Translations under genes and position numbers: made by a program
Source of the DNA: Arthrobacter sp. Bz4
GTDB taxonomy: Bacteria > Actinomycetota > Actinomycetes > Actinomycetales > Micrococcaceae
Assembly: GCF_003075455.1 (NCBI RefSeq)
Contig: NZ_QDAE01000004.1
Location: forward strand, 124,001-188,000
Reading direction: 5' to 3'
Length of the DNA stretch: 64,000 nucleotides
Notes under the pieces: model-generated
What the model saw: only the letters and a program-made list of their open reading frames with translations
Told to the model about the DNA's origin: nothing
Databases searched by the model: none
Shown here: positions 6,195-26,927 of the stretch, piece by piece
How the letters are laid out: every line of letters starts with the position of its first letter
Numbering within the stretch: position 1 is the stretch's first letter

Positions 6195-6233
6195 TAGTCC
6201 GCACTTTCGTCACTGGGTCTTCGCCACAGGCAC

Positions 6234-6264
6234 TTGTCAGATGTCTTATGTCTGGTGCTATTGT
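6234..6264 (+). promoter_or_regulatory. Possible sigma-A promoter of the GntP permease
   Basis: TTGTCA (6234-6239) and TATTGT (6259-6264) are 19 nt apart, a little long. The same stretch repeats TGTC three times at about 8-10 nt intervals, a plausible site for the neighbouring GntR regulator. Nothing here proves either role. Confidence 0.3.
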
Positions 6265-6358
6265 GACAGGCAGCACAGTGCCCGTCAAAAGAATCGACCA
6301 GGCCGGTGTGAACCCCTGAGGTGGCAACGAGGCCTGCTCAGTGACCGAGGAGCAGTAC

Positions 6359-7849: not shown

Positions 7850-7868
7850 TCTAGCTGATTTACCTTAA

Positions 7869-7920
7869 CAGTGGCCGGGCGGCTCGGATGTGTATCCGAG
7901 TCTCCCGGCCACTGCTGTTT
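7869..7920 (+). terminator. Rho-independent terminator of the permease gene
   Basis: An 11-bp perfect outer stem (CAGTGGCCGGG at 7869-7879 with its complement at 7904-7914) encloses a second small hairpin (CTCGGA/TCCGAG). A short T-rich run follows at 7918-7920. It lies 19 nt after the permease stop. Confidence 0.8.
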
Positions 7921-7941
7921 CTAGCGGATCTGATCCGTAGG

Positions 7942-8202
7942 CTATTTGCTGTAGTGGTAGCGGCATTGTGCGATGCGGATCTCGTCCGCGACCACCTTGT
8001 AAACCAAACGGTGCTCGTCATTGATCCGGCGGGACCAATAGCCCTGAAATCCGTGTTTGAGTGGCTCGGGCTTACCCATGCCCTCGTTCCCGTTCCGCTG
8101 GATGTCCTTAATGAGGACGTTGATCCGCTTCAAGATTCTGCGGTCTTCGGCTTGCCACCAGACATAGTCCTCCCATGCCCGCTCATCCCAGAGCAAGGTC
8201 AT
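7942..8202 (-). CDS. yoeB: YoeB-family mRNA interferase toxin
   Basis: An 86-residue Txe/YoeB toxin, a ribosome-dependent RNase of the RelE superfamily. It has the hallmark DYVWWQAEDRRILKRIN helix, the EPLKHGFQGYWSRRI segment with conserved Gly/Trp/Arg, EHRLVYKV, and the C-terminal CRYHY containing the catalytic His and Tyr. Length is typical (84-90). It overlaps the antitoxin gene by 4 nt (ATGA), the usual antitoxin-first coupling. All catalytic residues seem intact, so the toxin should be active. Confidence 0.95.
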   Translation of the reverse strand: MTLLWDERAWEDYVWWQAEDRRILKRINVLIKDIQRNGNEGMGKPEPLKHGFQGYWSRRINDEHRLVYKVVADEIRIAQCRYHYSK

Positions 8203-8450
8203 TCGGCAAGCTCGTGGGCAACCCCATCGCCTCGCTCCAGGTTCTCGATGGCACCAAGGAGTCGGCGGGCATTCTCTGGGCTGCGGAGCAAGTACGCAGT
8301 TTCCTTCAGTGACTGATAGTCCTCAAGGGAAACGATGACTACCGGCTCCTTCCCTGCGCGGGTGATCACCACCTCTTCGCGGTCGTCGAGTACTGCATCG
8401 AGGGTTGCGGCGTAGTTTGCACGTGATTCTGAGTAGGTCATGGTCTTCAT
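8199..8450 (-). CDS. yefM: YefM/Phd-family antitoxin
   Basis: An 83-residue Phd/YefM antitoxin. The N-terminal DNA-binding half reads MTYSESRANYAATLDAVLDD with EEVVITRAGKEPVVIVSLEDY. The C-terminal ELAE-ending helix would wrap the toxin. It binds YoeB and, with it as co-repressor, its own promoter. AAGGAG (8457-8462) precedes the ATG at good distance and abuts the palindrome at 8461-8472. Neither gene has other operon partners. Confidence 0.93.
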   Translation of the reverse strand: MKTMTYSESRANYAATLDAVLDDREEVVITRAGKEPVVIVSLEDYQSLKETAYLLRSPENARRLLGAIENLERGDGVAHELAE

Positions 8451-8460
8451 AGCATTCTCC

Positions 8461-8472
8461 TTACGTACGTAA
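8461..8472 (-). promoter_or_regulatory. Palindrome at the yefM leader, likely autoregulatory operator
   Basis: TTACGTACGTAA is a perfect 12-bp palindrome that touches the yefM ribosome site. A further GTAC half-site follows at 8477-8480. YefM proteins are known to read GTAC-centred palindromes over their promoters, so this is the natural operator candidate. Confidence 0.5.
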
Positions 8473-8579
8473 TATTGTACGCTCCAGAGTTTGTCTTGTC
8501 GCGGGTTCCCCGCAGCTGTTCATCACCGACTCAATCCTTGGCTGATTCAGCTCTTCCCGGAAGATCTGATCCATGATGC

Positions 8580-9455
8580 CTACAGCTGGGGGACGCAGGG
8601 GCCGGTGCCGAGCAGAGCGAGGCCAGCTCTGTCTCCGTCGCCGAGGGCGGTGAGGCCGTTGTTTCCCTCGTGCATGAGTTGGCTGGGGTCATCGACGTGA
8701 TCGAGCCCGACGACGTGAGCTAGCTCGTGCACGATGATGGCCCTCACCTGGTCGCGACCATCCGGGTATTGAATGATGTTGGTAAGGTCAGGCGCGTCGA
8801 GCTGGACCTGGCCAGCGACATAGACAAAGGGCTTGCTCGGGGTGTGAGCGTAGGGGCTGCCGCCGAGACCGGCGACGTCCCCTTCCAGGCCAGGGATCTC
8901 TGCCGGGCTGGTCCAGGTGATCAGGATGGGTGCCCATCGTTTGCCGTAGCGATCAGGCTGGTAGGTCTCCCGGTCCTCACTGGGTGCCTCGGTGGTGATA
9001 CCGCGGTAAACGAACGTCAGTCCGGTGGCAGCCGATATTTCGGCGACGGCTTCCTCAATCAGTCCGTCGGATCCCGCGGGAGCGAAGTCAGGCCGCACCA
9101 CATAGTGCACCGGTCGACACGGGTCGTAGGCCACGAAGTCTTGAGAACTGTCGGGTGATTCGTGCAGCGCAAATGACGTGGATCCATTGGTTGCCGGCGG
9201 GAGGCCTAATGGGACATCCGAGGCGTCGACACCGCGAGGTGGGACGGGGGATCCAGGAAGGTGGGGGAGCGCAACGGCGAGGATGTAACGGTCGAAGACT
9301 GTCGGAGTCAGGTACAGGCCGACCACCAGGGCAATAACTCCAAACGTGCCGAGTCTCAGTCCGCGGCCGGTGGACCGCCGACGTCGTTGCCTGCGGATGC
9401 GCTTGGGTTTGGTGTTGTTGTCCTGATAAAACCAGTCACGATCCATCGCCCCCAT
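8580..9455 (-). CDS. Membrane-anchored metzincin (matrixin-like) zinc protease
   Basis: A 291-residue protein with a basic N-terminus ([10 protein letters not shown]), one hydrophobic helix at about residues 34-53 and a large extracytoplasmic domain. The metzincin zinc site HELAHVVGLDHV (about 242-253) has three His and the catalytic Glu. It is followed by SQLMHEGN, a Met-turn candidate. Cys103 and Cys287 could form a disulfide. Related actinobacterial proteins are annotated as matrixin-family metalloproteases; substrates are unknown. The gene stands alone. Signal anchor rather than cleaved signal is my inference, since no clear cleavage site follows the helix. Confidence 0.8.
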   Translation of the reverse strand: MGAMDRDWFYQDNNTKPKRIRRQRRRRSTGRGLRLGTFGVIALVVGLYLTPTVFDRYILAVALPHLPGSPVPPRGVDASDVPLGLPPATNGSTSFALHESPDSSQDFVAYDPCRPVHYVVRPDFAPAGSDGLIEEAVAEISAATGLTFVYRGITTEAPSEDRETYQPDRYGKRWAPILITWTSPAEIPGLEGDVAGLGGSPYAHTPSKPFVYVAGQVQLDAPDLTNIIQYPDGRDQVRAIIVHELAHVVGLDHVDDPSQLMHEGNNGLTALGDGDRAGLALLGTGPCVPQL

Positions 9456-9710
9456 GGCATTGCTTCCCCCCGAGATTTCTGCTGTTCCTGGTTCAGCATT
9501 ACCGATGCCATCGTGTGGACGGTGTTTCCTTCGGCAATCCTGATGGAACGCTGAGCCAAGTTTCGAAGTAGATCGCAGGGTCCACCGTAGGCTTCAATCA
9601 CGAGCATGAGCCGGGGGACATCATGCGCTGGGGGTCCAGGCGTTCAAGTTCTTCTACCTGTGTGTCGCGTTGTGCTAAATCCATTCGCGTTATCAGTCCA
9701 CGGAGAACAA

Positions 9711-11185
9711 GTGAAAACAATCAGAGCTGCCCTCATGATGCTCGCGGTGCTGGTGATTGGCGCCGGTACCCTCGTCGCACCGACCCAGGCAACCGCCGCG
9801 ACAACGTTCCGGGATGTACCGTCCACCAGCCAGTTCCACACCGAGATCACCTGGCTGGCTACTCAGGAAATTTCGATGGGATGGCCGGACGGCACATTCC
9901 GACCATTGCAGTCGGTAGCCCGTGACGCGATGGCTGCCTTTCTTTACCGGTTGGCCGGCGAACGGCTTACATGGCACCTAAGCAGTCGTGGTTTACCGAT
10001 GTGCCAGTGGGAACCAAATTCTACAAAGAGATCCACTGGCTTGCATCGGAAGGCATCACCACCGGCTACCCAGACCGAACCTTCAAGCCTCTCAGCTCAG
10101 TCAACCGGGACGCGATGGCGGCTTTCCTCTACCGTTTCTCCGTGAAGCCAGCGTTCACAGCCTCCAAAACCAGCGCGTTTCGTGATGTGCCCACCAACAA
10201 CATGTTCTACAAAGAGATCAGTTGGCTCGCGAACACCGGGATCTCGACCGGCTGGCCCGATGGCCGATTCCTACCACTGCAGGCGGTCAAACGTGACGCC
10301 ATGGCAGCCTTCATGTACCGCACTAAGACCGAACTTCCGCTGAACCGTCCAGCCGAATACGGGTCCACCGCGATCCAGGTTCTGCAAACCATCCCGGTCA
10401 AGGGGCGGGCACCGAAAACCGGGTATAGCCGCGATAACTTTGGGCCATCCTGGTTTGATACCGACAACAACGGCTGCGACACCCGCAACGACATGCTGAA
10501 GGCGCAGCTCACTAACATCACCTACACCTACGGAACCTGTCAGGTAGCAACGGGTGTCCTGAACGATCCGTACACCGCCATGGTGATCAACTTTGTACGC
10601 GGAACCACCACCAGCACCAAGGTGCAGATTGACCACGTTGTCGCGCTCTCCGATGCATGGCAGAAGGGCGCGCAGCAGCTAAGTGCCGACCAGCGGCTGA
10701 TCTTCGCCAACGATCCACTGAACCTGCAGGCCACCGATGGTCCGACGAACGGACAAAAGGGCGACGGCGACGCCGCCACCTGGCTTCCGCCGAACAATTC
10801 CTATCGCTGCACCTACGTTTCCCGCCAGATCTCGACCAAGGCAATCCACGGCTTGTGGGTGACTCAGGCGGAGCGAGATGCGATGGCAGGTGTGTTAAGT
10901 AAGTGTGCCGGACAACCAGCAGCGGTGACTCAGCCGGCTCCGGTTGTGCTGACTCCGGCCCCAAAGCCTGCGCCGGCCCCAAAGCCTGCACCAGCTCCAG
11001 CACCGAAGCCGAGTCCCGCGCCAAAGCCAGCGAATCCCGGAGATACCAAGAACTGCGGTGACTTCAGCACCTGGCGGGAAGCTCAGACCTGGTACGAAAA
11101 GTACTTCCCGTACTACGGCGACGTGGCTCGGCTCGATGGCAACAACGATGGCATCGTCTGCGAGTCGCTTCCCGGCGCACCATAA
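9711..11185 (+). pseudogene. Frameshifted secreted SLH-HNH nuclease with excalibur domain
   Basis: Starts at GTG 9711 behind GGAG with a good signal peptide (MKTIRAALMMLAVLVIGAG...ATAA). Three S-layer-homology repeats follow, then a secreted HNH/DUF1524-like nuclease domain (GCDTRNDML, VQIDHVVALSDAWQKGAQ, ANDPLNLQA, DAATWLPPN). After that come a Pro/Ala/Lys linker and an excalibur calcium-binding domain (DGNNDGIVCES). Repeat 1 is in one frame; repeat 2 onward is in the -1 frame, with the switch between about 9956 and 9971. One missing base explains it. Alternatively ATG 9971 starts a shorter protein, but that would have no signal peptide or ribosome site. A paralogous nuclease is at 59986-61355. 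The protein would be wall-bound and cut extracellular DNA. Confidence 0.8.
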
Positions 11186-11203
11186 GGACGACAGTAAGTA
11201 TTG

Positions 11204-11235
11204 ACCGGGGGCCGTGTTTCATCCTGGCCCCCGGT
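11204..11235 (+). terminator. Terminator hairpin after the SLH nuclease gene
   Basis: ACCGGGGGCC (11204-11213) pairs perfectly with GGCCCCCGGT (11226-11235) across a 12-nt loop, then TTGTC. It is a strong stem with a weak T-tract, 19 nt past the stop. Confidence 0.7.
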
Positions 11236-11257
11236 TGTCGCTGCTAGGCTTCGCTGA

Positions 11258-11701
11258 GTGACCGATCTTCCCTGTTTGTCTCTTCTCCGAACCATCGCCC
11301 GAATCGTGCTGGGCGCGTTCCTCCTCTTCGCCGGGGTGGCGCACCTGTTTTTTGCCCGCGCCGAGTTCGCGGCCCAGGTCCCCGTATGGATGCCGCTCGA
11401 TACTGACTTTGTGGTGGTGGCGTCCGGGATCGTCGAGGTGGTTCTGGGGGCTGCGCTCATCTTCCTACCGCGCTGGCGAGTCCTCGTTGGCTGGATCGTC
11501 GCGGCCTTCTTCGTCGCTGTTTTCCCAGGCAACATCGCCCAGTACGTCGACGGTGTCGACGCGTTCGGTCTGGATACCGATAGTGCTCGTCTGATCCGCT
11601 TGTTCTTCCAGCCGGCCCCGATCGCATGGGCACTGTGGTCGACCGGAGCCTGGCGGGACCGCGGCTTGTTGCGCAAATCCAGCGAGCGCCGCGGCCAGTA
11701 G
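11258..11701 (+). CDS. DoxX-like membrane protein
   Basis: 147 residues with four predicted hydrophobic segments (about 10-28, 45-65, 72-92, 112-130) and the DoxX-type opening IARIVLGAFLLFAGVAHL, followed by the conserved ASGIVEVVLGAAL. DoxX-family proteins are small inner-membrane proteins, some linked to thiosulfate oxidation or oxidative stress; no specific role can be given here. GTG start at 11258 with no clear ribosome site. It is monocistronic. The 225 nt that follow (11702-11926) hold no gene I can support. Confidence 0.75.
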   Translation: MTDLPCLSLLRTIARIVLGAFLLFAGVAHLFFARAEFAAQVPVWMPLDTDFVVVASGIVEVVLGAALIFLPRWRVLVGWIVAAFFVAVFPGNIAQYVDGVDAFGLDTDSARLIRLFFQPAPIAWALWSTGAWRDRGLLRKSSERRGQ

Positions 11702-11926: not shown

Positions 11927-12880
11927 GTGAATGTTCATATGGGGATGGAAGAGGATCAGCGCGATGAGTCTTTCGACGCGCGGCTCCGGCGCGAAGCTAT
12001 GGCATGGTTGGCGATACGGACCAACGACGGAGCGGACGAGCTTCACTGGAGCGACTACGAGGATTTCACTTTTGATGGCGAAGCGTTCAAATTGCGGGAC
12101 CGTTACAAAGGAATTTGGAAACCTCGACGGCTAGATGCGGCACTCTCCTTCAGCACTACCTTCCGGGCTCCAGGGCAGTCGCGTCCGTACGAAGATGACA
12201 CTGGGTCAGACGGATTGTTTCGTTACAAATGGCAGGGTGATGACCCTGACCATGCTGACAACCGGGCTTTGAGGCAAGCTCAAAAACTCGGACTTCCTTT
12301 GATTTGGTTTTTTGCGGTTCGCACCGGTTGGTACTTACCGGTTTTCCCGGTCTTTCTCCTGGAAGAAGAAGCTCACCTGAAGCAATTCGTCGTCGACCTC
12401 GATCCGTTGCGGGCTAACGTGGGCAACTTACCGTTAGAGATCAACTTCCCCTTACATTTTGAGCGTCGCTACCGGAACCAGCAGGTAAAAAGGCGGCTCC
12501 ATCAGGGACTATTTCGCGCCGACGTGATGCGTGCTTACGCCACGAAATGTGCTGTGTGTTCCCTAGGACACAGGCAGTTACTGGATGCCGCTCACATTGT
12601 CCCGGACTCGCACGAAGATGGCGTTGCCACCGTCGCCAACGGTTTGGCGCTCTGCAAGATTCATCATGCGGCCTTTGACGTGAACATTCTTGGCATCCGC
12701 CCAGACCATGTAGTAGAAATTCGGGCCGACCTTCTAGAGGAAATGGACGGTCCTATGCTCCAGTTTGGGTTGAAAGAACATCACAATACGAGGTTGATGA
12801 ACGTTCCTCCACGAAGGGCAGACCTCCCCAGCGGAGATCTGCTCGAGATTGCTTACCAACGGTTCCGCAGCGCAGGGTGA
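11927..12880 (+). CDS. HNH endonuclease, probable restriction-type
   Basis: 317 residues. The C-terminal HNH domain is clear: CAVCSLGHRQLLDAAHIVPD (His/Asp of the first strand), then ANGLALCKIHHAAFD, with Cys-x2-Cys and a later Cys-His-His for zinc. The N-terminal 190 residues have no catalytic motif I know and probably recognise DNA; they include IWFFAVRTGWYLPVFPVFLL. HNH_2-type enzymes of this length are common as solitary restriction nucleases. No methylase lies beside it. Base composition is visibly more AT-rich than flanking housekeeping genes, as is the adjacent EcsC gene, suggesting acquisition. The start may be GTG 11927 or ATG 11939/11945; none has a strong ribosome site. Confidence 0.8.
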   Translation: MNVHMGMEEDQRDESFDARLRREAMAWLAIRTNDGADELHWSDYEDFTFDGEAFKLRDRYKGIWKPRRLDAALSFSTTFRAPGQSRPYEDDTGSDGLFRYKWQGDDPDHADNRALRQAQKLGLPLIWFFAVRTGWYLPVFPVFLLEEEAHLKQFVVDLDPLRANVGNLPLEINFPLHFERRYRNQQVKRRLHQGLFRADVMRAYATKCAVCSLGHRQLLDAAHIVPDSHEDGVATVANGLALCKIHHAAFDVNILGIRPDHVVEIRADLLEEMDGPMLQFGLKEHHNTRLMNVPPRRADLPSGDLLEIAYQRFRSAG

Positions 12881-12976: not shown

Positions 12977-14080
12977 TCAGCGGAGGTCGGGTCCGCCCGC
13001 CTCGGCGAGCTCGTTAAGCACGCTAATGGCTTCATCGGCGTCGTCTGATAGATCGTCACTGAATGTTTCAGGTATTTCTTCGTTTGCGAGATGCGGATAC
13101 TTTTCAATAAGAAACCGGCGCCGGTATTCGACGTCCGCGACATCGACAATTGATTCGAGGGTTGTCCAATTGAGGGTAAACCCGACGAGGACGCCGACGG
13201 CAGGCACCACCTTGCCGAGCCCCTGCTTCGTCAGACGTTTTCCAAATGCCTTAGAGAACTGTTTCGATACCTGCGAGATAACGGACCTGTCCAGAACCTC
13301 CCAAGTTTTTCCGCGGACCAAAGACTGGGTAAGTCGCGAAATGTCGGAAAGTGCAGCAGTCTTGGCGCTGGCTGAGGCGGCGGTGCCCGCATTAACGACA
13401 GACAAGATGAAGAGCTTTTCCGCAGGCTCTTCAGGGTCATAACCGTAGAGCAGCGAGATATGACCAACCGATCTAGAGGCGAGTCCTAGAACCAGCGCGG
13501 CGTCACTTACAAATGCTCCGGCAATGGCTGCGCCCGACGGTGCCGCTGCCGCCCCGGCAGAAGTGGCTGTTGCGAGTTGCCCACCCGAAATGACTATTCC
13601 GGCAGTTGCTCCAGACATTGCTGCAGCAAGAGGATAGAGCCAACTCGTTCCTCGTCCATGGACCGCATCTATCTGTTCAAGGTCGAGCTGTCGCAAATCA
13701 AGAAGCCTTGCCACATCGTGACCGTGCTTTTTATGGCTTGCCACAACGCGTTTGGGGGAAAGCCCGGCCCGTGAAACGCGTCCCGCCGTCTGTCTCACAG
13801 ACCCAAAAGCAGTGTCGCTCCAATTTGGAAGTGCGTTGGCTGCCTTTCGAGCGCCGGCTCCAACCGTCTGTGTGCCCTTTGCGACCACGGATTGACCCCG
13901 CGAGACGGCAGATTGGGCGCCGGGGTGGCCGTTTAGAAACTTTGTTGCATGCTTACCGATGCTAGTCGCGCCATTAGAAACTTGCTGTCCAGCATTCCTC
14001 ATCGCCCTTGAGAGAGGACGGCCTCGGAATCGTTGGATGTTGCGCCATGCATCGAGTTCATACTCAGAGGGTTCAATCAT
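12977..14080 (-). CDS. EcsC-family protein
   Basis: About 367 residues starting at ATG 14080 (MIEPSEYELDAW); the frame remains open to 14170 but the extension looks non-coding. The EcsC domain spans roughly residues 110-340: ARLLDLRQLDLEQIDAV, two Ala/Gly-rich hydrophobic stretches, then SLLYGYDPEEPAEKLFIL, and a late KAFGKRLTKQGLGKVVP(A)VG segment followed by YRRRFL. EcsC proteins are membrane-associated; the name comes from the Bacillus ABC transporter locus, and the biochemical role is unknown. The region 30-100 is Gly/Ala/Ser-rich and low complexity. It sits alone between an HNH nuclease and a NERD helicase; a defence role is conjecture. Confidence 0.75.
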   Translation of the reverse strand: MIEPSEYELDAWRNIQRFRGRPLSRAMRNAGQQVSNGATSIGKHATKFLNGHPGAQSAVSRGQSVVAKGTQTVGAGARKAANALPNWSDTAFGSVRQTAGRVSRAGLSPKRVVASHKKHGHDVARLLDLRQLDLEQIDAVHGRGTSWLYPLAAAMSGATAGIVISGGQLATATSAGAAAAPSGAAIAGAFVSDAALVLGLASRSVGHISLLYGYDPEEPAEKLFILSVVNAGTAASASAKTAALSDISRLTQSLVRGKTWEVLDRSVISQVSKQFSKAFGKRLTKQGLGKVVPAVGVLVGFTLNWTTLESIVDVADVEYRRRFLIEKYPHLANEEIPETFSDDLSDDADEAISVLNELAEAGGPDLR

Positions 14081-15911: not shown

Positions 15912-16062
15912 TATTTCCCCCATTTTCTTGACGGCGGAGAACCCCGCCACCGTCTGTATTTGCAGGCTATCAACCCTTGCCCACATTTTCGTGACGCATT
16001 CCACAATGTCGGTGGGGGAATGGACTATGGAACTAGATAACGCAGATGCGGGAGGGAAATGA

Positions 16063-16524
16063 ATGCTGAAGATCGAAGTGGATTCGCAGTTGGAACTGAT
16101 GCTTCTGGTACAACCGGAAGAGTCCTTAGAATGGCAGGCCCAGGTTGAGGGAGCCTACACGGGGTGGCACGACGTCGAATCGTCAGACCACCTGGTGGGA
16201 GTCGTCAAGATGATTGCTGGCGACGGCGACTGGCTCACCGTCCAGACCAAGGGGCTCGATCAACTGAGGGTGGGTCGATACGCGCAGACGATGAACACCG
16301 GTACGGGGTACCAGCTGGAGGTCGCACGGGCCGACGGTGGCACCACCTACAACTGGCGGATTGGCCTCGGGGCAGCGGCGGCCGACGCCGGTAACGAGCC
16401 GTACGCGGCAGCCGTTAGTTCGCAAGACCTCGGCCTGGCGGCGGTGATCGAGGTACTAGTCTCCTGGCTGCGCGGCCAAGGGCTACCGCTCGGCTACGGA
16501 GCGGCGCTCCGGATCTATCGATGA
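16063..16524 (+). CDS. Unknown 153-residue protein
   Basis: I do not recognise this family. It has a good ribosome site (GGAGGGAA before ATG 16063) and no signal peptide or membrane segment. The sequence is mixed alpha/beta with conserved-looking MLLVQPEESLEWQAQVEGAY, GWHDVESSDHLVG, NWRIGLG and VIEVLVSWLRGQG. A decayed second copy lies at 24689-25087, and residues shared by both (PEE-x2-EW, W-x-D, NWRIGLG, EVL-x3-WLRG) probably mark the fold. It is divergent from the NERD helicase and convergent with the AddA-like gene. A partner or regulator role for one of these is possible but unproven. Confidence 0.7.
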   Translation: MLKIEVDSQLELMLLVQPEESLEWQAQVEGAYTGWHDVESSDHLVGVVKMIAGDGDWLTVQTKGLDQLRVGRYAQTMNTGTGYQLEVARADGGTTYNWRIGLGAAAADAGNEPYAAAVSSQDLGLAAVIEVLVSWLRGQGLPLGYGAALRIYR

Positions 16525-16606: not shown

Positions 16607-19600
16607 TCACCGTGCCTCCCGGTACATCACTTCCGCACCGGCATCCCTGCAGAAGATCAGCGCCAGCCGGCTCACGGACTGCCCGGTGATCCCCTGGACC
16701 ATATCCGCGTAGGTCGAGAGCTGGCGCCAGTAGGCGGCGATGGTTTCCTCCTGCGGGGTGCTGTCGGTTTTGAAGTCGGCAATGACCAGGGTGCCGTCGT
16801 CCTCCCGGTACATCAGGTCAATCACGCCCTCAACGGTCACGCCGCCGCGGGGTACGACGACGGGAAGCTCCAGCCAGTGCTCCCGTTGGGCCGCGCGACG
16901 CACCGGCTCGCTGGAAAGAGCCGCACGTGCGCGGGCTGCCAGCGCCGGGGCAGTGACTCCGTGCGCCAATAGGGCGACGCTGCCTGCGATGGCTTCGACA
17001 TCTGCTGACTCCTGCAGGTCGCTGAGCTCCATCACGCGGTGCAGGGCTGTTCCAAATTCCGCGCCCCGTTCCGCATTGGCTGGAGCAGGCGACGGGAGCG
17101 TTTCGTCGTCAAGCGGTAAAAATTGAAGCTCTCCCTCGATTGGCCCCCCATCCGCCGTGCCTTTGGCGAGTGCGGTGACCGAGGTGGTTGAGACGATTGC
17201 TGAGCTAGCCTGCCATTCGGCACGCTGCCTGTTCCACTCGTCCCATGGCTGAACCGGTTGGACGTCCGTGTGCCTCCTCGCTACGGACTCGCTCGGCGGC
17301 GGGAGTTCGAGCGACGGCACAGCAGGGTCATCGACGTTCTGGAGGAGCTGACCGAGGCTGCTTCTGGAGTTTGTATAGTACGAGAGAACCAGGTGACTCT
17401 CGGCTCGGGTGCACGCGACGTACAACAGACGGCATCTTTCGGCCTCGTTGAACTGTCTCTCCACCGATTGGGCGTCGCCGTACCCCGCGGAGGTGATGCC
17501 CTTGACGAAGGAAACGTGCAGCGTGCCGTCGGCGTCCCAGAGGGCAGCGTCGTAGGAGGTCCGCGGTGCGGAGCCGGTACCGGCAAGGATGACCATCGGA
17601 AATTCCAGGCCCTTTGAGGCGTGGATGGTCATGATGCGGACGGCGTCGACGTCGGTCTCCGGCACCACAGCCTCGCGGACCCGGGTGTTCTCCTCCTGCT
17701 GCGTGCCCGCCCAGACTAGGTAATCCCGGAGGCTGCCGTGGGTGGCCTCGCTCCAGGCACGGGCCTGGTCAATGACGAAGCGGAGCCGCCGCCACACGTC
17801 CCGGTAGCGCGGTGAATCGATTGCTGTTTCCATCATCCGCCGCTCGGTGACCAGGGTGTCCATCAGCTCAGCGGGAGTGAGGACGCTGATCTGCCGGCAC
17901 AGCTCTGACAGGTATTCGATGCCCTGGGCTACCGGTGAGCTCTCCAGGCCCGCGGGTGCAGGCGCGAAGAGGTTCCAGGATCCGCCCGAGGTCTTCCATT
18001 CGAACAGTTCGTCATCCCCGCACCCGAACGGCGCAGACCGCAAACAAAGGACCAAGGCTGCCGTATCCGCGGTGTTCGCGACCGCCTTGAGCGCCAGCAG
18101 CAGGTCGTTGACTTCCTGCGTCGAGTAGACCAGGGAGGAAGCCTCCGCCCGGTACTCAACGCTGGCGTCGTCAAGCGCGTCCTCCAGCGCTGTCAGCGCG
18201 GTCCGGGTGGGCAGCAGGATGGTGACGTCCTTGAGGCGGAGGGGAGTGGTCGCGAAGCCCTCGGAGCGCTTGGCTTGCTTCAGCCAGGCAGGCTCGCCCG
18301 ATCGTCCGGTGGCGAGGAGGATGGCGGCGGCGACGTCGGCGGCTTCCTGCTTCCGCATCTCGTCGGCCGAAACCTTGCCCGATTCGCCGGCGACGGCGCC
18401 CTCCCGGCCGATGATGGAGACCGCCGGGCCATCGGTGTCGTCCCACGCAGGTCGGGCCGGATCCGCTGTGAGCAGCTGATAGGGCGGCTGGACGTTCCCG
18501 TTCGCCTGAATGAGCTGACTGAAGCTCGTGTTGATCCAGTCAAGCAGGGCGTCCGTTGAACGGAAGTTGGTGCGCAGGGAAGCGATCCGTGAGTGCTCGT
18601 TCCGCTCGAACCGGCGCTGGGTGTCCAGGTAGGTGGCGATGTCGGCACGCCGGAACCGATAGATGGACTGCTTGGGATCGCCGACGGTGAAAAGCCTGCC
18701 GGCTGGGATGACCAGCGACTGCCAGTCATCCACTCCGCATACCGTCGTGGCGGTGATGCGGGTGGCGATTTCGGCCTGGACGGGGTCGGTGTCCTGGAAT
18801 TCGTCGAGCATGATGCACCGGTACCGCTCGCGGAGGGCGCGGTGCACGTCGGTGGTCCGCTGGCCGGTGCCGACGAGGAGGTCGCGGGCGTGAATGAGGA
18901 GGTCGTTGTACTCGAGTTCACCGCTGCGCTGGCGTTCGCGTGCCGCTTCGACGAACAGTTCGGCCATCGCGGCGGTGACGGTGTCCACCGCCGGGGCGAC
19001 GAAGCTGTCCCGCAGTGCGTTCGCCGCTTCGCCGAGCTTGGCGCACGCGTCGCGCACGGCGGTGATGTCGATCGCCCAGTTTCCCTTCTTGCCCTGTTTC
19101 GGCGTGAGGGGAATGTCATCGAGAATTTCGAGCACCATCACCAGTTCGCCGGTGCCCGCGTTCTGGAGTCGACCGTGCCAGGAACGGACCTTCTCTAGGG
19201 CGACGAGAAGGAGGTCGTCGGCATCCGAGCAATGTTGTGTATGGTCCAGCACCTCCGCGGTTTGCCGGAGCAACGGACCGAGGTCTGCGGCCGGAATGGG
19301 GCGCCGCTGGGGCGGGTGGCTTTCCAACCGGTCCCAGTTGGCGTCCAGCGCCGAGGCGAGGGTCTCCAGATGATTGAGCGACGCACCGACGGCGAGGAGG
19401 ACTCGCAGTGCGTCGTCGAGGGTCGGATCGCTGAACAGTTGCTGACGAATCAGTTCCCACCGGCGGGTGAACGCGATCTGTGAGCGGAGTTCGTCGACCA
19501 CTGTGATCAGCGGGGGCACACCGGCCTCGATGGGGTGTTCGCTGATGATGCGGGCCGCAAAGGAATGGATGGTGCCGATGGGGGCGGTGTCCAGTTGGGC

Positions 19601-19867
19601 CAGGGCCACCTCGCGTATCGGGGTCTTGTCTTCCGCGAGCCTGCGCCGGACACGGGCGCGGAGTTCTCCGGCGGCCTTTTCGGTGAAGGTGATCGCGGCG
19701 ATGTTTTTTAGCTCAACACGGTTGTCCACGAGGGCGAGGATGCGCTCGACCAGTTCGTGGGTCTTGCCACTGCCCGCGCCGGCCTCGACAAAGATGTTGA
19801 CCAGCCGCTCCTCCTTAATCAGGGTGCGGTCTGACTGGTCTGCGAGGTCCAGAACGTCGAGATTCAT
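16607..19867 (-). CDS. AddA/UvrD-like helicase with C-terminal PD-(D/E)XK nuclease
   Basis: 1086 residues with the full SF1A helicase set. These are Walker A VEAGAGSGKTHELV (about residue 28), motif Ia ITFTEKAAGELRAR, CIMLDEFQDTDPVQ (II), FTVGDPKQSIYRFRRADI (III), SLRTNFRS (IV), IMTIHASKGLEFPMVI (V) and LLYVACTRAESHLVLS (VI). The C-terminus carries a RecB-type nuclease: TVEGVIDLMYR, VIADFKTD and the QLSTYADMV helix. It overlaps the AddB-like stop by 4 nt (ATGA) and must work with it as a helicase-nuclease complex on double-strand ends. Whether this is the cell's main recombination nuclease or an accessory or defence one cannot be told from the window. Confidence 0.88.
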   Translation of the reverse strand: MNLDVLDLADQSDRTLIKEERLVNIFVEAGAGSGKTHELVERILALVDNRVELKNIAAITFTEKAAGELRARVRRRLAEDKTPIREVALAQLDTAPIGTIHSFAARIISEHPIEAGVPPLITVVDELRSQIAFTRRWELIRQQLFSDPTLDDALRVLLAVGASLNHLETLASALDANWDRLESHPPQRRPIPAADLGPLLRQTAEVLDHTQHCSDADDLLLVALEKVRSWHGRLQNAGTGELVMVLEILDDIPLTPKQGKKGNWAIDITAVRDACAKLGEAANALRDSFVAPAVDTVTAAMAELFVEAARERQRSGELEYNDLLIHARDLLVGTGQRTTDVHRALRERYRCIMLDEFQDTDPVQAEIATRITATTVCGVDDWQSLVIPAGRLFTVGDPKQSIYRFRRADIATYLDTQRRFERNEHSRIASLRTNFRSTDALLDWINTSFSQLIQANGNVQPPYQLLTADPARPAWDDTDGPAVSIIGREGAVAGESGKVSADEMRKQEAADVAAAILLATGRSGEPAWLKQAKRSEGFATTPLRLKDVTILLPTRTALTALEDALDDASVEYRAEASSLVYSTQEVNDLLLALKAVANTADTAALVLCLRSAPFGCGDDELFEWKTSGGSWNLFAPAPAGLESSPVAQGIEYLSELCRQISVLTPAELMDTLVTERRMMETAIDSPRYRDVWRRLRFVIDQARAWSEATHGSLRDYLVWAGTQQEENTRVREAVVPETDVDAVRIMTIHASKGLEFPMVILAGTGSAPRTSYDAALWDADGTLHVSFVKGITSAGYGDAQSVERQFNEAERCRLLYVACTRAESHLVLSYYTNSRSSLGQLLQNVDDPAVPSLELPPPSESVARRHTDVQPVQPWDEWNRQRAEWQASSAIVSTTSVTALAKGTADGGPIEGELQFLPLDDETLPSPAPANAERGAEFGTALHRVMELSDLQESADVEAIAGSVALLAHGVTAPALAARARAALSSEPVRRAAQREHWLELPVVVPRGGVTVEGVIDLMYREDDGTLVIADFKTDSTPQEETIAAYWRQLSTYADMVQGITGQSVSRLALIFCRDAGAEVMYREAR

Positions 19868-22728
19868 TTTTCACCCTTCAGGAGGCGTGCGTAGGAGGAA
19901 AGCGAGGGTGCTGACTGCAGCTCGACCCAGTGCTGGTCCATGCCCAGCTGACCGGCCAGCGACGTGAAGGACTTCCGATCCCTGGTGGGCTCCGGCTTGG
20001 GCGGGAAGACACCGTTGCGGATGCCCGCGATGATGAGGCCGGAATCCTGCCGCAGCTGATCGATGACTTCGTCAGTCACGGCATAGCCGATCTGTTCGAA
20101 GCCGCCCGTACGGGAGGTGAACCAGTAGGAGGCGGCGACGTCGTCGTCATTTCTCGCCAGCGATCGAGCGAACAGGCCGTAGACGGGCAGTTGAAACTTG
20201 GTGCCGTAGGCGGTGGGATGTTTGTTGAGGTTCGTGAACTTTTTTGCATTACCGGTCTTGTAGTCGATGACACGGACCCGGCCGTCGGGGTGCTTGTCGA
20301 TGCGGTCCACCTTGCCGCCGAAGCGGAGGACGGTGCTGTCGTCGAGTTCGAGTTCGACGGCAGGAGCGGTGCCGTCCATGCCGAAGGATGCCTCGGCTGC
20401 GTCGTAGACCCAGCCTTCGAAGGCCGCCTCCTCGTCGTCGCGGAAGACGCGGTGGAAGTCCTGGCGCATTCTCGCTTGGTTCTGGTCCCAGACGTGCTGC
20501 AGCCAGTGCGGGTTGGCGAAGTCTGCAAAGGCGGCTTCAGCAAGCTCTATCAGCCGGTTCACCGAGCGCGGCTGCTGTTTGTCGGTGACTTCCCGCACGT
20601 AGTCCTCCAGCACCTTGTGCATCAGGTTGCCGCGCTGCATCGGGTTGATCTGCACTTCGCGTTCAACATCTTCGAAGATGTCCACTTTGAGGACGTGTTT
20701 GAGGAAAAAGCTGAAAGGGCTGAGCGCCCAGTCTTCGAGGCGGGTCGGGGACAGCGCTTTGGACTCCTCGATGATACGGCCCGCGTATCGGCCGAGGTTG
20801 CCGTTGAAGCGGGTGAACCCACCGGTGCGGCGGTCACGGGCCACTTCGACTGCCCGCTGCAGGATGATGTCCTCGCTCAGGGCCCCGGTTCCGGTTGCCG
20901 CGGTGAGGAGGTAGCGCAGGCGCCATTCCTGCTCGGTGGCGGCGACCGGCGCACCACCCTGCAGTGCGGTAGGGGAGCCGTGCTCGATGCCATGGGCGAA
21001 GGACAGCAGTTCCCGCTTCTCTCCGGTGGCGATCCAGCGTGAGAGAAGCTGGTCCCCGGCGCCACGGAGGTCACCGCGCGGGCTCATGATGGTTTTCGTG
21101 GTTCCGGCTGCCAGCGCGGCGAGGAACTGTTGGTGCGCCTCCTCGGCGCGTTGCTCGACGGTCAGCAGGTCCCCGCCGACGACCGCGGCGACGGAGTCGG
21201 GCAGCAGCGGGTTTTCGCGGATCCGGGCTGGCGCGAGACCTTCTGCCGCGCCGATGAGGTAGACGACATCCAGGTCCCGTCCCACGGCATCCGCGTAGTT
21301 GCCGACGACGACGCCGGTGCCGCTCTTTCCGCTCCAGCCCGCTTTCGCTGCGATGCTGTCCTCAAGAGTGCTGCGAATCAGGAGCGGGCGGGGTGCGGGA
21401 CCGATACCGCCGAGCTCTTCGAGTCTCCGGATGATGTCCAGCAGCGCTGCGCGGGTCACGGCTTTCTCGGGTGGCTCGGTGTCGCCGCGGCGGCCCATGA
21501 AGTCGGTGAGGAGTTCTATCAGGGCCACCGAAACCGCGGACCAGGATTGAGCTTCGAGCACCCGACCGACGCACTGGGTGAGCGCGGTTATGAAGCTTTC
21601 GAACAGGGCCAGCTTTGCGCGACGCCTGGCGAGGTCTTCGTCGAGTTCGCCGTCGTCGTCGGCGTTTGCTCCGGTGTCGATACCACTGGCCGTTGGGGGA
21701 GGGTTTACGTGCAATCGCTCGCAGGTGGCGCTGCTGGGGAGGTCGTGGTTCCGCCAGACGAGGGTGCCTTCGGCGAGGACGTTGAGAATGATGCGCTTGT
21801 CGGGTTCGCGAGGGTCGAGCGTTAATAGCTGTACCAGTCCGCGCGCCAGTGGCGCGTCGGCGAGGCGCCGCGAGGCGGGGCCCACGAAGGTGATGCCTGC
21901 CTGCCTGAGACGTTGGGCGAGGAGCGCGCGGTAGGGGTCGGCGGTGGAGTGGAAAACACCGATCCGGTGGCCAGGAACTCCGCTGCGGAGTTGTTCGATG
22001 ATGAGGCGGACGACGCTGCGGACCTCATCCTCGGCATCGGACGCGGTGATTACCTCGGTTGCGTCGTCGACGGTGCCGCTGGCGCTGATGTGTCGGAGTC
22101 CTGCCTGCTCAAGGTCGCGCCGGAAGGCGGCGACGGCCGGTTGGACCGGCGCGCCGAGCATGAAGCCGATGAGGGTGCCCAGCCGCCTCTGGATGGCAGG
22201 AATGTGCAACAGGCGGCTGGCGCAGATGAAGAGGTCATGGTCCGTGTACCACCGGTCTTCGAGCGACATCAGGGCGGTGCGGTGAATGCGCAGCACCTCC
22301 CTCACCAATCCCGGGCACACGGCGTCGTAGTCGGAATGAATCGAGTCGAGCAGCGGAGCGGTGCGTGTGATTGCCCGGGCGGTGGCAGGCTGATCGGCCA
22401 CCTGGTGAAAGTCCCCCGGGTTATCGGTGAGTGCTCGGCTAATGGCTGCCTGGCGCACCGGGACGGGAAGAGGTTGCCGCCCGATCATCGAGGGGTCAGC
22501 AGCGACCACCTCGGACGCGAGGTCCTTGAGGGTGTAGGCGCGGACGCCGACGCTGCCGGCGCCGTTGTTGAGGGTGCGGCCGAGGTAGCGGGTGACATCC
22601 AGCCCGGCGGCGTGCGAGGGCACGAGCACGGTGATCGGAGCGAGCGGATCCGAAACTTTCGCTTCGGTGATATGCGCGGCGAGTTCAAGTAGCGCTTGGC
22701 TTACGGTGCCGACGGTCTGCGTAATCAT
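19864..22728 (-). CDS. AddB-like PD-(D/E)XK nuclease subunit
   Basis: 954 residues, starting at ATG 22728 (MITQTVGTVSQAL) behind GTGGGGG. The N-terminal half follows the AddB plan (ITVLVPSHAAGLDVTRYL, RAYTLKDLASEVV) but lacks any Walker A, so the motor is inactive. The C-terminal nuclease domain is complete in outline: SPTRLEDWALSPFSFFLKHV, RGNLMHKVLEDYV, LRFGGKVDRID and VRVIDYKTG with the D-(x)n-DYK active site. The Cys that normally precedes the F-x-YFL helix in AddB is Ser here, and I see no matching Cys cluster, so the iron-sulfur pin seems missing. It is coupled to the helicase subunit downstream and lies behind two small genes upstream. Confidence 0.83.
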   Translation of the reverse strand: MITQTVGTVSQALLELAAHITEAKVSDPLAPITVLVPSHAAGLDVTRYLGRTLNNGAGSVGVRAYTLKDLASEVVAADPSMIGRQPLPVPVRQAAISRALTDNPGDFHQVADQPATARAITRTAPLLDSIHSDYDAVCPGLVREVLRIHRTALMSLEDRWYTDHDLFICASRLLHIPAIQRRLGTLIGFMLGAPVQPAVAAFRRDLEQAGLRHISASGTVDDATEVITASDAEDEVRSVVRLIIEQLRSGVPGHRIGVFHSTADPYRALLAQRLRQAGITFVGPASRRLADAPLARGLVQLLTLDPREPDKRIILNVLAEGTLVWRNHDLPSSATCERLHVNPPPTASGIDTGANADDDGELDEDLARRRAKLALFESFITALTQCVGRVLEAQSWSAVSVALIELLTDFMGRRGDTEPPEKAVTRAALLDIIRRLEELGGIGPAPRPLLIRSTLEDSIAAKAGWSGKSGTGVVVGNYADAVGRDLDVVYLIGAAEGLAPARIRENPLLPDSVAAVVGGDLLTVEQRAEEAHQQFLAALAAGTTKTIMSPRGDLRGAGDQLLSRWIATGEKRELLSFAHGIEHGSPTALQGGAPVAATEQEWRLRYLLTAATGTGALSEDIILQRAVEVARDRRTGGFTRFNGNLGRYAGRIIEESKALSPTRLEDWALSPFSFFLKHVLKVDIFEDVEREVQINPMQRGNLMHKVLEDYVREVTDKQQPRSVNRLIELAEAAFADFANPHWLQHVWDQNQARMRQDFHRVFRDDEEAAFEGWVYDAAEASFGMDGTAPAVELELDDSTVLRFGGKVDRIDKHPDGRVRVIDYKTGNAKKFTNLNKHPTAYGTKFQLPVYGLFARSLARNDDDVAASYWFTSRTGGFEQIGYAVTDEVIDQLRQDSGLIIAGIRNGVFPPKPEPTRDRKSFTSLAGQLGMDQHWVELQSAPSLSSYARLLKGEK

Positions 22729-22825
22729 AAAGCCCCCACTTCTGTGATTCACAACATAACAGGGGGTGGTGACAGTTCTGCGCCGCACCCTCGGCGCCAT
22801 GGATTGCTATTGGGCCGCTAGCCCC

Positions 22826-23401
22826 TTACTCGCCCGAATCGAGCAGCCTGTCGAAGCTTGTCAAACCCAGGTCCGGCGCAGTCATGCAGATGAAGATGGT
22901 GGTGGTGACGATGGGCTTCGGCTGGTTCTGCACCGGCTTGCCCTTCACTTTTGCCGAAGGCTTCGGCGCCGGTGAAGGCGGCGTGTTCTGTCTGGACCGG
23001 AGTTCAACACCGGGAACACCGTTGACGAGGAGTGAGCGGGAGTGCTGCCTCTTGATCAGGGCGCGCAGATCGGACGCGGACAGCCGGTCATTGGGGTTGC
23101 CGGTGATGCCAAGGACGGTGTCGTTGATCTTGTCCAGCAGGTCGCGGAGGAATGCCTTTTGGAGAGAGGCGCTGGAGCCGATCCCTGCCCACGTAATGAC
23201 GACGCCGACAATAAAGGCGAGAATGGTGGCTGCGGAACCATTTCTGAGCGGGGGAATAAAGATCATCAGGATGCCCGCGAGGATGTATCCGATGATGACT
23301 GCGCCAATAAACATGCTGCAGCCGCCCGTGCCGGGACGGCCGTTCCATTGTTCAGAGGTAAATGAGGTAAGAATTCGCCGCTCAGAGTTAGAGTTTTGCA
23401 T
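22826..23401 (-). CDS. Small membrane protein of the helicase-nuclease operon
   Basis: 191 residues, family not recognised. Two hydrophobic helices lie at about residues 30-50 (FIGAVIIGYILAGILMIFI) and 57-75 (AATILAFIVGVVITWAGIG). A soluble segment with NDRLSASDLRALIKRQHSR follows, then a Pro/Lys-rich linker (PPSPAPKPSAKVKGKP) and a C-terminal IVTTTIFICM strand. ATG 23401 lies 1 nt after the stop of the coiled-coil gene. The AddB-like gene starts 98 nt downstream, so one transcript is likely. A membrane anchor next to a nuclease pair is the odd feature. Confidence 0.65.
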   Translation of the reverse strand: MQNSNSERRILTSFTSEQWNGRPGTGGCSMFIGAVIIGYILAGILMIFIPPLRNGSAATILAFIVGVVITWAGIGSSASLQKAFLRDLLDKINDTVLGITGNPNDRLSASDLRALIKRQHSRSLLVNGVPGVELRSRQNTPPSPAPKPSAKVKGKPVQNQPKPIVTTTIFICMTAPDLGLTSFDRLLDSGE

Positions 23402-23402
23402 G

Positions 23403-23939
23403 TCAGTCCTCCTTCAGTTCGAGCAGGGCTTCCGCAAGCGCGATGGCTTCCCGCGCGTCGCCGAGTTCGTCCCGCAGCAACGGGTCCCGAGCTTCGCTGA
23501 TCGACGCTTCCGGTGTGCCGGCCAGATCGGCCATTGCTTTGCGCAGGTTTTCGCGGTCGGCATGGAGCATCCGAGATGATTCCAGCTTCAGCTTGCTGCG
23601 CTCGAGCTCCCGCAGGGAGCGATCGATTTCATCGCAGCGCTGTTGTACGACTGCCAGTCGCTCATTGATCCGATCGGTGCGCTTGCGGAACATGGTCTCC
23701 ATGTTCCGTGCGACATCCTGCAGGTCGGTGAGGGACTTGTACGCGTTCGGCGTGTTTGTGTGACCATCGACCTTCTGTGCCACGAGTGCCCGACGCCGTT
23801 CCCACTGTTGGAGTCCGGTGAAGTGCCTGGTGTGCAGCCAAATCAGCACGTCGAGACTGGTGCCTACTGACTCCCGGCGCCGATGGAGGTTGGCGGAGGC
23901 AGCGTCAAGGCGCTGGATGAACTCGGTGTAGTTGTCGAT
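23403..23939 (-). CDS. Coiled-coil protein, apparent ATC start
   Basis: 178 residues if read from ATC 23939, which lies 5 nt after a strong AAAGGAG (23945-23951). The first standard start codon in frame is GTG 23849, with no ribosome site. The upstream sequence (DNYTEFIQRLDAASANLHRR) reads as genuine coding sequence. Residues about 60-130 form a long heptad-like helix rich in Arg, Glu and Leu (RKRTDRINERLAVVQQRCDE and following), so it probably dimerises. No catalytic motif is seen and I do not recognise the family. It is the first gene of the putative operon with the membrane protein and AddB/AddA-like subunits. Confidence 0.6.
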   Translation of the reverse strand: MDNYTEFIQRLDAASANLHRRRESVGTSLDVLIWLHTRHFTGLQQWERRRALVAQKVDGHTNTPNAYKSLTDLQDVARNMETMFRKRTDRINERLAVVQQRCDEIDRSLRELERSKLKLESSRMLHADRENLRKAMADLAGTPEASISEARDPLLRDELGDAREAIALAEALLELKED

Positions 23940-26027: not shown

Positions 26028-26927
26028 CTAGGTGGCACCGCTTAGCTCCGCGTGTGCAGCGAAGTTTCGGGCGGTCTGCTCGTTGTGCGCCCCGCTGTGT
26101 TTTCCGATCAGCAGGTCAACGGCTGCTTCGACGTCCTTTGTTTCTGCAGGGACACCACGGCGTACATAGCCCTCAGGATCAACATAGATGTAGCCCCAAC
26201 CGAACAAGGCGTCACATCCGAGACTGCAAACAAGCATTGCTACCGAGCGGAAGTTCTTGCGCTCCTCCTCGGTGCAGCTATTGCGCGGCTTGATGTGTCC
26301 TGCGACCAGGAGTTTAGCTGGGCGCTCTTCACCACAGACAGAGCATGATGCTATTGGCCTGCCGTTAAGGAGATGCCTCCGCAGATCGGCTTGTTCTTGC
26401 CGGACGGTTCCCAGAGAAACTTCATCTGTTTCTCCGCCGTCCCATTCATCCGGACGGCCGTAAAGTCCATCCATCATGGCCGCTGAGGCGGCCATTCCAA
26501 GCTCGTGCAACAGAGAGCGCCCGTCTTCTTCGGACAGAGCGGAAAGAAATTTCTGCTGCGGATGGCCAGCAGCGTTGATTGGGCTCCCAGGACCGTTCCT
26601 GATCAGCTCCGCCGCACGTGAATAGTGAAGCGCCAGACCTGTTTGAATGGGATCCACAGTAACCAGCCACCCGTCATCATTCTCTGCGGAATAAACCTTT
26701 GGGTTTTCCTCTGGCCGAGACCAGGGCTGCCATGAAGTGGCCACTCGGCTCACTGCGCGCAGGTAGCTCTTCTGGTAATGGAACACCTTGTCACCAGGTT
26801 GCAAGGATTGGATCAGCATCCGGGCCTTTTCTGTGTTCTTACCGGCCCGCGGGCAGGTCCACAGAGTGCCTTGTCGGATTGCCTCCTCATAATTCATGCC
26901 TTGACTCGCCCACCAGTAATTCACCAT
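26028..26927 (-). CDS. EVE-HNH endonuclease, probable modification-dependent restriction enzyme
   Basis: 299 residues from ATG 26927, with GGAGGGG before it. The N-terminal EVE (PUA-like) domain is seen in VNYWWASQGMNYEEAI, TLWTCPRAG, LQPGDKVFHYQKSYLRAVSR and a VDPIQTGLALHY strand. Family knowledge says EVE pockets flip and read 5-methyl- or hydroxymethyl-cytosine. The C-terminal HNH domain shows CSVCGEERPAKLLVAGHIKPR, then CSLGCDALFGWGYIYVD, with zinc Cys pairs. This is the architecture of known EVE-HNH type IV enzymes that cut modified phage DNA. It has no methylase partner, as expected. It is divergent from the truncated DUF6994 gene. Confidence 0.8.
   Translation of the reverse strand: MVNYWWASQGMNYEEAIRQGTLWTCPRAGKNTEKARMLIQSLQPGDKVFHYQKSYLRAVSRVATSWQPWSRPEENPKVYSAENDDGWLVTVDPIQTGLALHYSRAAELIRNGPGSPINAAGHPQQKFLSALSEEDGRSLLHELGMAASAAMMDGLYGRPDEWDGGETDEVSLGTVRQEQADLRRHLLNGRPIASCSVCGEERPAKLLVAGHIKPRNSCTEEERKNFRSVAMLVCSLGCDALFGWGYIYVDPEGYVRRGVPAETKDVEAAVDLLIGKHSGAHNEQTARNFAAHAELSGAT

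What the first reader, a model, noticed from the sequence alone, without database searches (positions are those of the whole stretch)
16607..23939. AddAB-like helicase-nuclease operon with a coiled-coil protein and a membrane protein
Four same-strand genes: coiled-coil protein, two-helix membrane protein, AddB-like subunit without Walker A and apparently without iron-sulfur Cys, and full AddA-like helicase-nuclease. Housekeeping AddAB or AdnAB pairs do not normally carry the two small partners. Neighbours are NERD-helicase, HNH, EcsC and EVE-HNH genes, so this is my best candidate for an undescribed defence or membrane-tethered DNA-processing system.
Basis: inference. Interest (0 to 1): 0.7.

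Follow-up and report, generated by a model that had tools for sequence, protein, structure and literature searches.

The report
Cluster-free AddAB enzyme in defence islands
This is an extra, horizontally moving DNA-degrading machine of soil bacteria that lacks the iron-sulfur clamp its relatives carry and sits where other bacteria keep anti-virus systems, so it is probably a second line of defence against foreign DNA, though nobody has tested that here.

Summary
The four genes are there as described. AddA (16607-19867) and AddB (19864-22728) form an AddAB-like helicase-nuclease beside a two-helix membrane protein (MP) and a coiled-coil protein (CC). The genome (Micrococcaceae, Arthrobacter type) also has its own AdnAB, so this pair is accessory.

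addB-addA can move alone: Kitasatospora and Williamsia share 87.5% DNA identity over essentially these two genes. CC-MP is a separate cassette: MP is in 15 of 295 Micrococcaceae genomes and beside AddAB in 4. A NERD-helicase is the commoner partner (within 10 kb at 15 of 24 Micrococcaceae AddAB loci). In three Arthrobacter-type loci a six-gene NERD-to-AddA block is found.

The strongest new point: this AddB lineage has lost the iron-sulfur cysteines (0 of 37 rows; 74-75 of 75 outside) yet keeps its nuclease residues. Its loci lie among restriction, TerD and similar genes; at the site of the window's island one relative has type I BREX and another a type II restriction system. A control set of neighbours held fewer such genes, but not none.

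Verdict: probably an accessory anti-invader AddAB variant. Defence is inferred, not shown; a fixed membrane-tethered four-gene machine is not supported.

The parts
16607..19867 (-). AddA-like SF1 helicase with C-terminal PD-(D/E)XK nuclease, 1086 aa
   Evidence: nearest solved: 3u44_A, E 8.7e-81 with profile A2
19864..22728 (-). AddB-like subunit: helicase-like N-terminal part without Walker A, PD-(D/E)XK nuclease domain, no Fe-S cysteines, 954 aa (an in-frame upstream ATG at 22800 would give 978 aa)
22826..23401 (-). MP: two-helix membrane protein, 191 aa, second gene of the CC-MP cassette
23403..23849 (-). CC: coiled-coil-like all-helical protein; homology extends to about 23948 without a standard start codon
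14229..16004 (-). NERD-nuclease plus UvrD-type helicase, the commonest partner of the AddAB pair in Micrococcaceae (an in-frame start at 15950 also possible)
11939..12880 (+). HNH_2 endonuclease gene of the same island; homologues near AddAB in Gordonia sp. ABSL49_1 (L077, 55%) and in L228 (60%)
12977..13618 (-). EcsC-family gene; last gene of the left side shared with relative G776 before the NERD-AddAB block begins
26028..26927 (-). gene without Pfam family; homologues at the far side of the island in relative G009 (69%) and beside the AddAB of G014 (37%)

Best explanation
An accessory AddAB-type helicase-nuclease, acquired as a mobile addB-addA pair and kept in defence islands. Shown from sequence: both subunits, an intact AddA motor motif set, two PD-(D/E)XK active sites, loss of the AddB iron-sulfur staple across one clade, horizontal spread, a variable chromosomal site used for other defence systems, and frequent company of a NERD-helicase. 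Inferred: the complex loads on free double-strand ends (or ends made by neighbouring restriction enzymes), AddA unwinds 3' to 5', and the two nucleases chop both strands, so incoming linear phage or plasmid DNA is degraded even when the host AdnAB is blocked by a phage inhibitor; without the staple, end capture must be done differently. The NERD-helicase would supply nicks or extra unwinding. CC-MP is a separate membrane-associated cassette that was captured upstream in one Arthrobacter branch; its role (anchor, sensor or membrane effector) is open.
For: Own AdnAB present. Patchy: 4 of 34 other genus genomes, 16 of 396 order, 8 of 393 class, 21 of 295 family genomes, own genome counted in each. 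Transfer: L082 Kitasatospora vs L092 Williamsia 87.5% DNA identity over 5,937 columns covering the two genes, one other 1-kb match at 73.9% and no other match over 150 bp. Site: same left flank, but BrxA/B/C, PglX, PglZ, BrxL in G007 and type II MTase, Vsr, REase in G009. Neighbours of 23 Fe-S-less loci: type III and GmrSD restriction, Mza, Leo, ZorD-like, TerD, NERD; 131 PADLOC families matched against 74 for controls of equal number. NERD-helicase in all 5 AddAB carriers and 8 of 30 others of 35 genus genomes searched for both, P 0.004. Cys loss 0 of 37 vs 75/75, 74/75, 74/75 with nuclease residues kept.
Against: No phenotype. Control neighbours also include restriction and BREX genes, and part of the contrast is by construction because NERD, sigma-helicase, CC and MP were in the test set. 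Not found in IMG/VR contigs with two queries. At least nine genomes of one Micrococcaceae genus (g26) carry it, several at one chromosomal region, which looks partly inherited rather than purely mobile. PADLOC has no system with these parts. In G014 and G011 the NERD-helicase is 20-25 kb from AddAB, not beside it.
Confidence: 0.58

Rival explanations
1. A second DNA-repair enzyme: the pair processes double-strand breaks for recombination under stress and is kept in islands by hitch-hiking, not selected for defence.
For: All catalytic parts of a resection enzyme are kept; the sister Fe-S-bearing pairs often have metabolic neighbours (PALP, chorismate-binding), as expected for chromosomal repair genes; presence in at least nine genomes of genus g26.
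Against: AdnAB is already present; patchy distribution, transfer between orders and placement in a site that carries BREX or R-M in relatives.
Confidence: 0.22
2. One reading: CC, MP, AddB and AddA form one membrane-tethered DNA-processing machine.
For: CC-MP lies upstream of AddAB on the same strand in 5 of 24 Micrococcaceae loci; G213 and G961 share a six-gene block NERD-helicase/sigma-CC-MP-AddB-AddA at 91.5% DNA identity whose ends match the first and last gene; AddB and MP co-occur in 6 of 295 genomes against 1.07 expected, P 0.0002, not corrected for relatedness.
Against: MP lies beside AddAB in only 4 of 15 genomes; 19 of 24 AddAB loci lack CC-MP; addB-addA moves without them; in G991 and G1007 both exist but far apart.
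Confidence: 0.12
3. A decaying remnant: the locus is no longer functional in this strain.
For: CC has no standard start in its homologous 5' part; AddB is truncated beside transposase-like genes in G011 and AddAB is split into several ORFs on a Microbacterium plasmid.
Against: AddA, AddB, MP and the NERD-helicase of the window are full-length and keep their motifs.
Confidence: 0.06

Closest known systems
Bacillus subtilis AddAB (PDB 3u44, 3u4q, 4ceh-4cej)
   Same: Two adjacent genes; AddA one motor plus nuclease; AddB inactive helicase-like fold plus nuclease; nearest solved relatives by profile and by fold
   Different: No Fe-S staple cysteines, about 100-200 residues shorter AddB, far below the NCBIfam addA/addB cut-offs, accessory beside AdnAB, defence-island setting
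Actinobacterial AdnAB (PDB 6ppj, 7sjr)
   Same: Helicase-nuclease pair with two nuclease domains; the genome's own pair is of this type
   Different: AdnA has a Walker A and Fe-S cysteines; the window pair is closer to AddAB in both subunits
Fe-S-bearing AddAB-like pairs of Kribbella, Blastococcus, Acidimicrobiia and others
   Same: Sister lineages, AddA 33-44% identical by BLAST, same gene order
   Different: Keep CPH plus CxxC; mostly metabolic neighbours. Only 4 of 75 keep the fourth cysteine in the canonical spacing
NERD-helicases of defence loci (PADLOC RTasNERD-Hel, C3a187)
   Same: NERD plus UvrD-type helicase matched over most of its length
   Different: Here with AddAB, no reverse transcriptase or CRISPR genes seen among the genes tested
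Gabija (GajAB)
   Same: UvrD-type helicase plus nuclease used in defence; AddA hits GajB models through the shared helicase core
   Different: No GajA-type match among the eight proteins scanned; different architecture

Membership tests
AddAB (Bacillus type) | Adjacent addB-addA, AddA with SF1 helicase plus C-terminal RecB-type nuclease | tested here: met
AddAB (Bacillus type) | AddB with helicase-like fold lacking a working Walker A, plus RecB-type nuclease | tested here: met
   (model pLDDT 76.5, best hits 4cei_B, 4cej_B)
AddAB (Bacillus type) | Iron-staple cysteines in AddB (four strictly conserved Cys, passages of PMC7430649) | tested here: not met
   0 of 37 rows of the clade at the three conserved Cys columns
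AddAB (Bacillus type) | NCBIfam equivalog scores for AddA and AddB | tested here: not met
   239.8 vs 707.65 (addA_Gpos), 45.3 vs 903.7 (addB_Gpos), 71.1 vs 486.5 (addB_alphas)
AddAB (Bacillus type) | Chi recognition and RecA-dependent recombination role | not testable with these tools
   needs biochemistry or genetics
AdnAB | Both subunits with motor motifs, AdnA with Fe-S; closest match AdnA/AdnB structures | tested here: not met
   the genome's real AdnAB is elsewhere
Known defence systems in PADLOC 2.0.0 | Set of system-specific proteins | tested here: not met
   only GajB-type helicase-core hits for AddA, weak DruK for AddB, none for MP
Defence-island gene (guilt by association) | Variable site or neighbours with known defence systems, patchy distribution, transfer | tested here: met
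Anti-phage system | Protects against phage or plasmid | not testable with these tools
   no experiment

The most novel reading that the evidence does not exclude
A new actinobacterial defence module: an AddAB that dispensed with the iron-sulfur staple when it left chromosomal repair, travels as a two-gene unit, and acts as a back-up end-dependent DNA shredder that phage inhibitors of AdnAB do not recognise; it plugs into interchangeable partner cassettes, a NERD-helicase, a sigma-region-4 regulator or helicase-sigma fusion, and the Micrococcaceae coiled-coil/two-helix membrane pair, the last possibly an alarm or membrane effector.
Probability: 0.3. Interest if true: 0.75.

Novelty: new variant of a known kind. 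Interest (0 to 1): 0.55.

Why it matters
The iron-sulfur staple of AddB is described as critical for the integrity of its nuclease domain (passages of PMC7430649); a clade of natural AddB proteins with all nuclease residues but no staple is a ready test of what the cluster is for. If the pair is a defence system, it shows that the cell's break-resection enzyme type has been recruited more than once against invaders and may explain how hosts survive phages that disable AdnAB or RecBCD. It would also give two small protein families, restricted so far to Micrococcaceae, a first handle on function.

Tried and rejected
Rejected: that this is the only RecBCD-type enzyme (AdnAB found). Rejected as general: a conserved four-gene unit. 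Rejected: a phage-borne unit in the collections searched (AddB in viral contigs; CC in viral contigs and phages: no relatives; these patterns reach close relatives mainly).

The paper searches gave no listing whose title or shown abstract describes an accessory AddAB in defence or this gene set; these are listings, open-licence papers only, and only passages of five papers were read, so absence from print is not shown.

Choices to know: the Fe-S-less group used was named partly from the cysteine pattern itself; the independent support is that AddA, a different protein, puts the same loci on one side of a branch (SH-aLRT 87, quick IQ-TREE, 63 rows; 100 in FastTree, 106 rows). Six of 112 AddB rows had no AddA over 700 aa and were left out. 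One search left out AddB pieces of 750 aa or less (among them L017, L021, L137, L230). The neighbour lists were replaced by those before any scan; the control is 117 proteins drawn at random from 184, the test set all 117 that met the same limits. A first P value of 0.0026 assumed three genomes not searched for AddB; the figure used is 0.004.
Full report
What is there. The window lies in a 3.41-Mb genome of 80 contigs, 99.94% complete. The four ORFs of the finding are confirmed on the minus strand. AddA carries UvrD helicase domains and PDDEXK_1, AddB only PDDEXK_1, MP and CC no family above its cut-off. The PDB profile search puts both subunits nearest B. subtilis AddAB (AddB 3u44_B, E 2.6e-11; AddA 3u44_A, E 8.7e-81), and the AlphaFold model of AddB (pLDDT 76.5) finds 4cei_B, 4cej_B, 4ceh_B, 3u4q_B and 3u44_B first, then AdnA chains. 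The CC gene is listed from GTG 23849, but homology continues upstream to about 23948 in an open frame without ATG, GTG or TTG.

It is not the housekeeping enzyme. The same genome has a pair on contig 11 whose subunits match mycobacterial AdnA (7sjr_A, E 1.1e-111) and AdnB (6ppu_B, E 9.5e-167). AddB relatives are patchy: 4 of 34 other genomes of the genus, 16 of 396 genomes of the order at E 1e-12, 8 of 393 of the class, 21 of 295 of the family at E 1e-50; the own genome counts in the last three. In one genus (g26) nine of the 21 carriers were found, several in one chromosomal region with shared flanks, so there it is partly inherited.

The iron-sulfur staple is gone in one clade. In an alignment of 112 AddB rows, three cysteine columns are filled in 75, 74 and 74 of 75 rows outside the clade and in 0 of 37 rows inside it, while the nuclease residues H704, D808, D822, K824 and Y850 are kept in 37 of 37 and Q846 in 36 of 37. 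Only 4 of the 75 keep a fourth cysteine in the canonical spacing. The groups were named partly from this pattern, but the AddA tree, from another protein, makes them one side of a branch with one change (SH-aLRT 87, 63 rows; 100 with 106 rows in FastTree). By comparison, a paper on related enzymes calls four such cysteines strictly conserved and the cluster critical for AddAB's domain integrity (PMC7430649, passages).

It moves. Kitasatospora arboriphila (L082) and Williamsia muralis (L092), of different families, share 87.5% DNA identity over 5,937 columns that cover addB and addA (AddB 89.9%, AddA 91.2% identical), with one other match of about 1 kb at 73.9%; other flanks did not align. Williamsia pair L084/L085 and Gordonia pair L077/L118 likewise align over the two genes, the Gordonia pair with one further short inverted piece; Gordonia L079/L081 also share a 1.7-kb stretch elsewhere. 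SPG23 (L071) and G961 (L190) share an 11,951-column block at 91.5% that starts at the NERD-helicase and ends at AddA.

Where it sits. Left of the window's island, genes at 4716-11701 have 85-97% identical counterparts in the same order in G009, G007 and G776. Beyond them the window has the NERD-AddAB block; G007 has BrxA, BrxB, BrxC, PglX, PglZ and BrxL; G009 has a type II methyltransferase, Vsr and a type II endonuclease; G776 keeps the HNH_2 and EcsC genes at 96% and 91%. In G004 and G017 the AddAB block lies between an acetamidase-family gene and a 118-aa gene; in G034 that interval holds a DpdE/ZorD-like helicase. Among 117 neighbours of 23 Fe-S-less loci the leading Pfam families are ResIII, Helicase_C, DEAD, NERD and TerD, and PADLOC families include type III and GmrSD-type restriction, Mza, Leo and ZorD. 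Among 117 control neighbours from 30 Fe-S-bearing loci the leaders are PALP and chorismate-binding enzymes, but BrxC, BrxL and type IV restriction models also match; 131 against 74 PADLOC families matched, of which only 25 each are shown. Part of the contrast is by construction, since NERD, helicase-sigma, CC and MP genes are in the test set.

The partners. At 24 Micrococcaceae AddAB loci held, a NERD-helicase lies within 10 kb at 15, a protein with a sigma-70 region 4 match at 9, CC at 5 and MP at 5. Of 35 genus genomes searched for both, all 5 with AddAB have the NERD-helicase and 8 of the other 30 do (P 0.004, no correction for relatedness), though in G014 and G011 it is 20-25 kb away. CC and MP are a cassette of their own: MP is found in 15 of 295 family genomes (17 places), CC is directly beside it at 16 of these 17 (the exception is an MP fragment), and AddAB is beside them in 4 of the 15 genomes. 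CC was found in 6 of 346 order genomes, all of this family, and on three Micrococcaceae plasmids. Other settings include penicillin-binding-protein genes (L195, L203) and, on a Pseudarthrobacter plasmid, a methyltransferase-helicase run. AddB and MP co-occur in 6 of 295 genomes (1.07 expected, P 0.0002 without correction for relatedness), so the link is real but loose.

How it most likely works. Established for AddAB enzymes (recalled, with passages of PMC7430649 and PMC3466216): AddA unwinds, both nuclease domains cut. Inferred here: the accessory pair degrades DNA with free ends, such as phage or plasmid DNA or restriction products, and stays active when AdnAB is inhibited; a listing abstract (PMC12407980) proposes that phages that antagonise RecBCD are sensed by Gabija, so such inhibitors are a plausible pressure. 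No step beyond sequence is shown. CC-MP may anchor, sense or act at the membrane; nothing here decides.

Comparison. It works like AddAB but fails two tested features of the family, the Fe-S cysteines and the NCBIfam scores, so I file it as an AddAB-like variant. It is not AdnAB and not a PADLOC system. A survey reports AdnAB only in Actinobacteria, some of which also encode RecBCD (PMC6452273, passages); in the passages seen it does not mention AddAB there. Plasmid collections hold AddBA-like pairs outside the phylum, for example Salinibacter ruber pSR116 near a WYL-domain gene.

Noticed in passing
L071:6202-8769, L072:6145-8769, L190:6339-8711: An SF2 helicase fused to a near-complete sigma-70 factor (regions 1.2, 2 and 4; Pfam on the L051/L071 copy), in the same block as CC-MP-AddB-AddA in three Arthrobacter-type loci.
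   Followed up: partly
L195, L196, L203, L204: CC-MP pairs lie beside genes for class A penicillin-binding proteins (Pfam confirmed for L195 and L203), hinting at an envelope role for the cassette.
   Followed up: partly
L169, L170 (G007) and L166, L167 (G009): The chromosomal site of the window's island is a defence hotspot: type I BREX in one relative, type II restriction with Vsr in another.
   Followed up: partly
L211:617-10060: On a Pseudarthrobacter plasmid CC-MP follows a methyltransferase and DEAD/DEAH helicase on the same strand.
   Followed up: no
window 16063-16524 (+): A 153-aa ORF of no Pfam, PADLOC, NCBIfam or PHROG family lies between addA and the NERD-helicase on the other strand.
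   Followed up: no
window 11939-12880; L077:17187-18101; L228:18812-19870: The HNH_2 gene of the island has 55-60% identical homologues near AddAB loci in other genera.
   Followed up: no
L022, L023, L059, L062 against the other 71 Fe-S-bearing rows: AddB cysteines form a series: four in canonical spacing (4 of 75), three in nearly all others, none in the window's clade.
   Followed up: partly
L021:8720-10899; L016: AddB is cut short beside transposase-like genes in G011, and AddAB is split into several ORFs on a Microbacterium plasmid.
   Followed up: no
L214 (Salinibacter ruber pSR116): An AddB-AddA-like pair on a plasmid of another phylum, near a WYL-domain gene.
   Followed up: no
L223, L224, L225: In three genomes of genus g26 a shared run of five or more same-strand genes lies upstream of addB in place of the sigma-like gene seen in L220-L222.
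   Followed up: no
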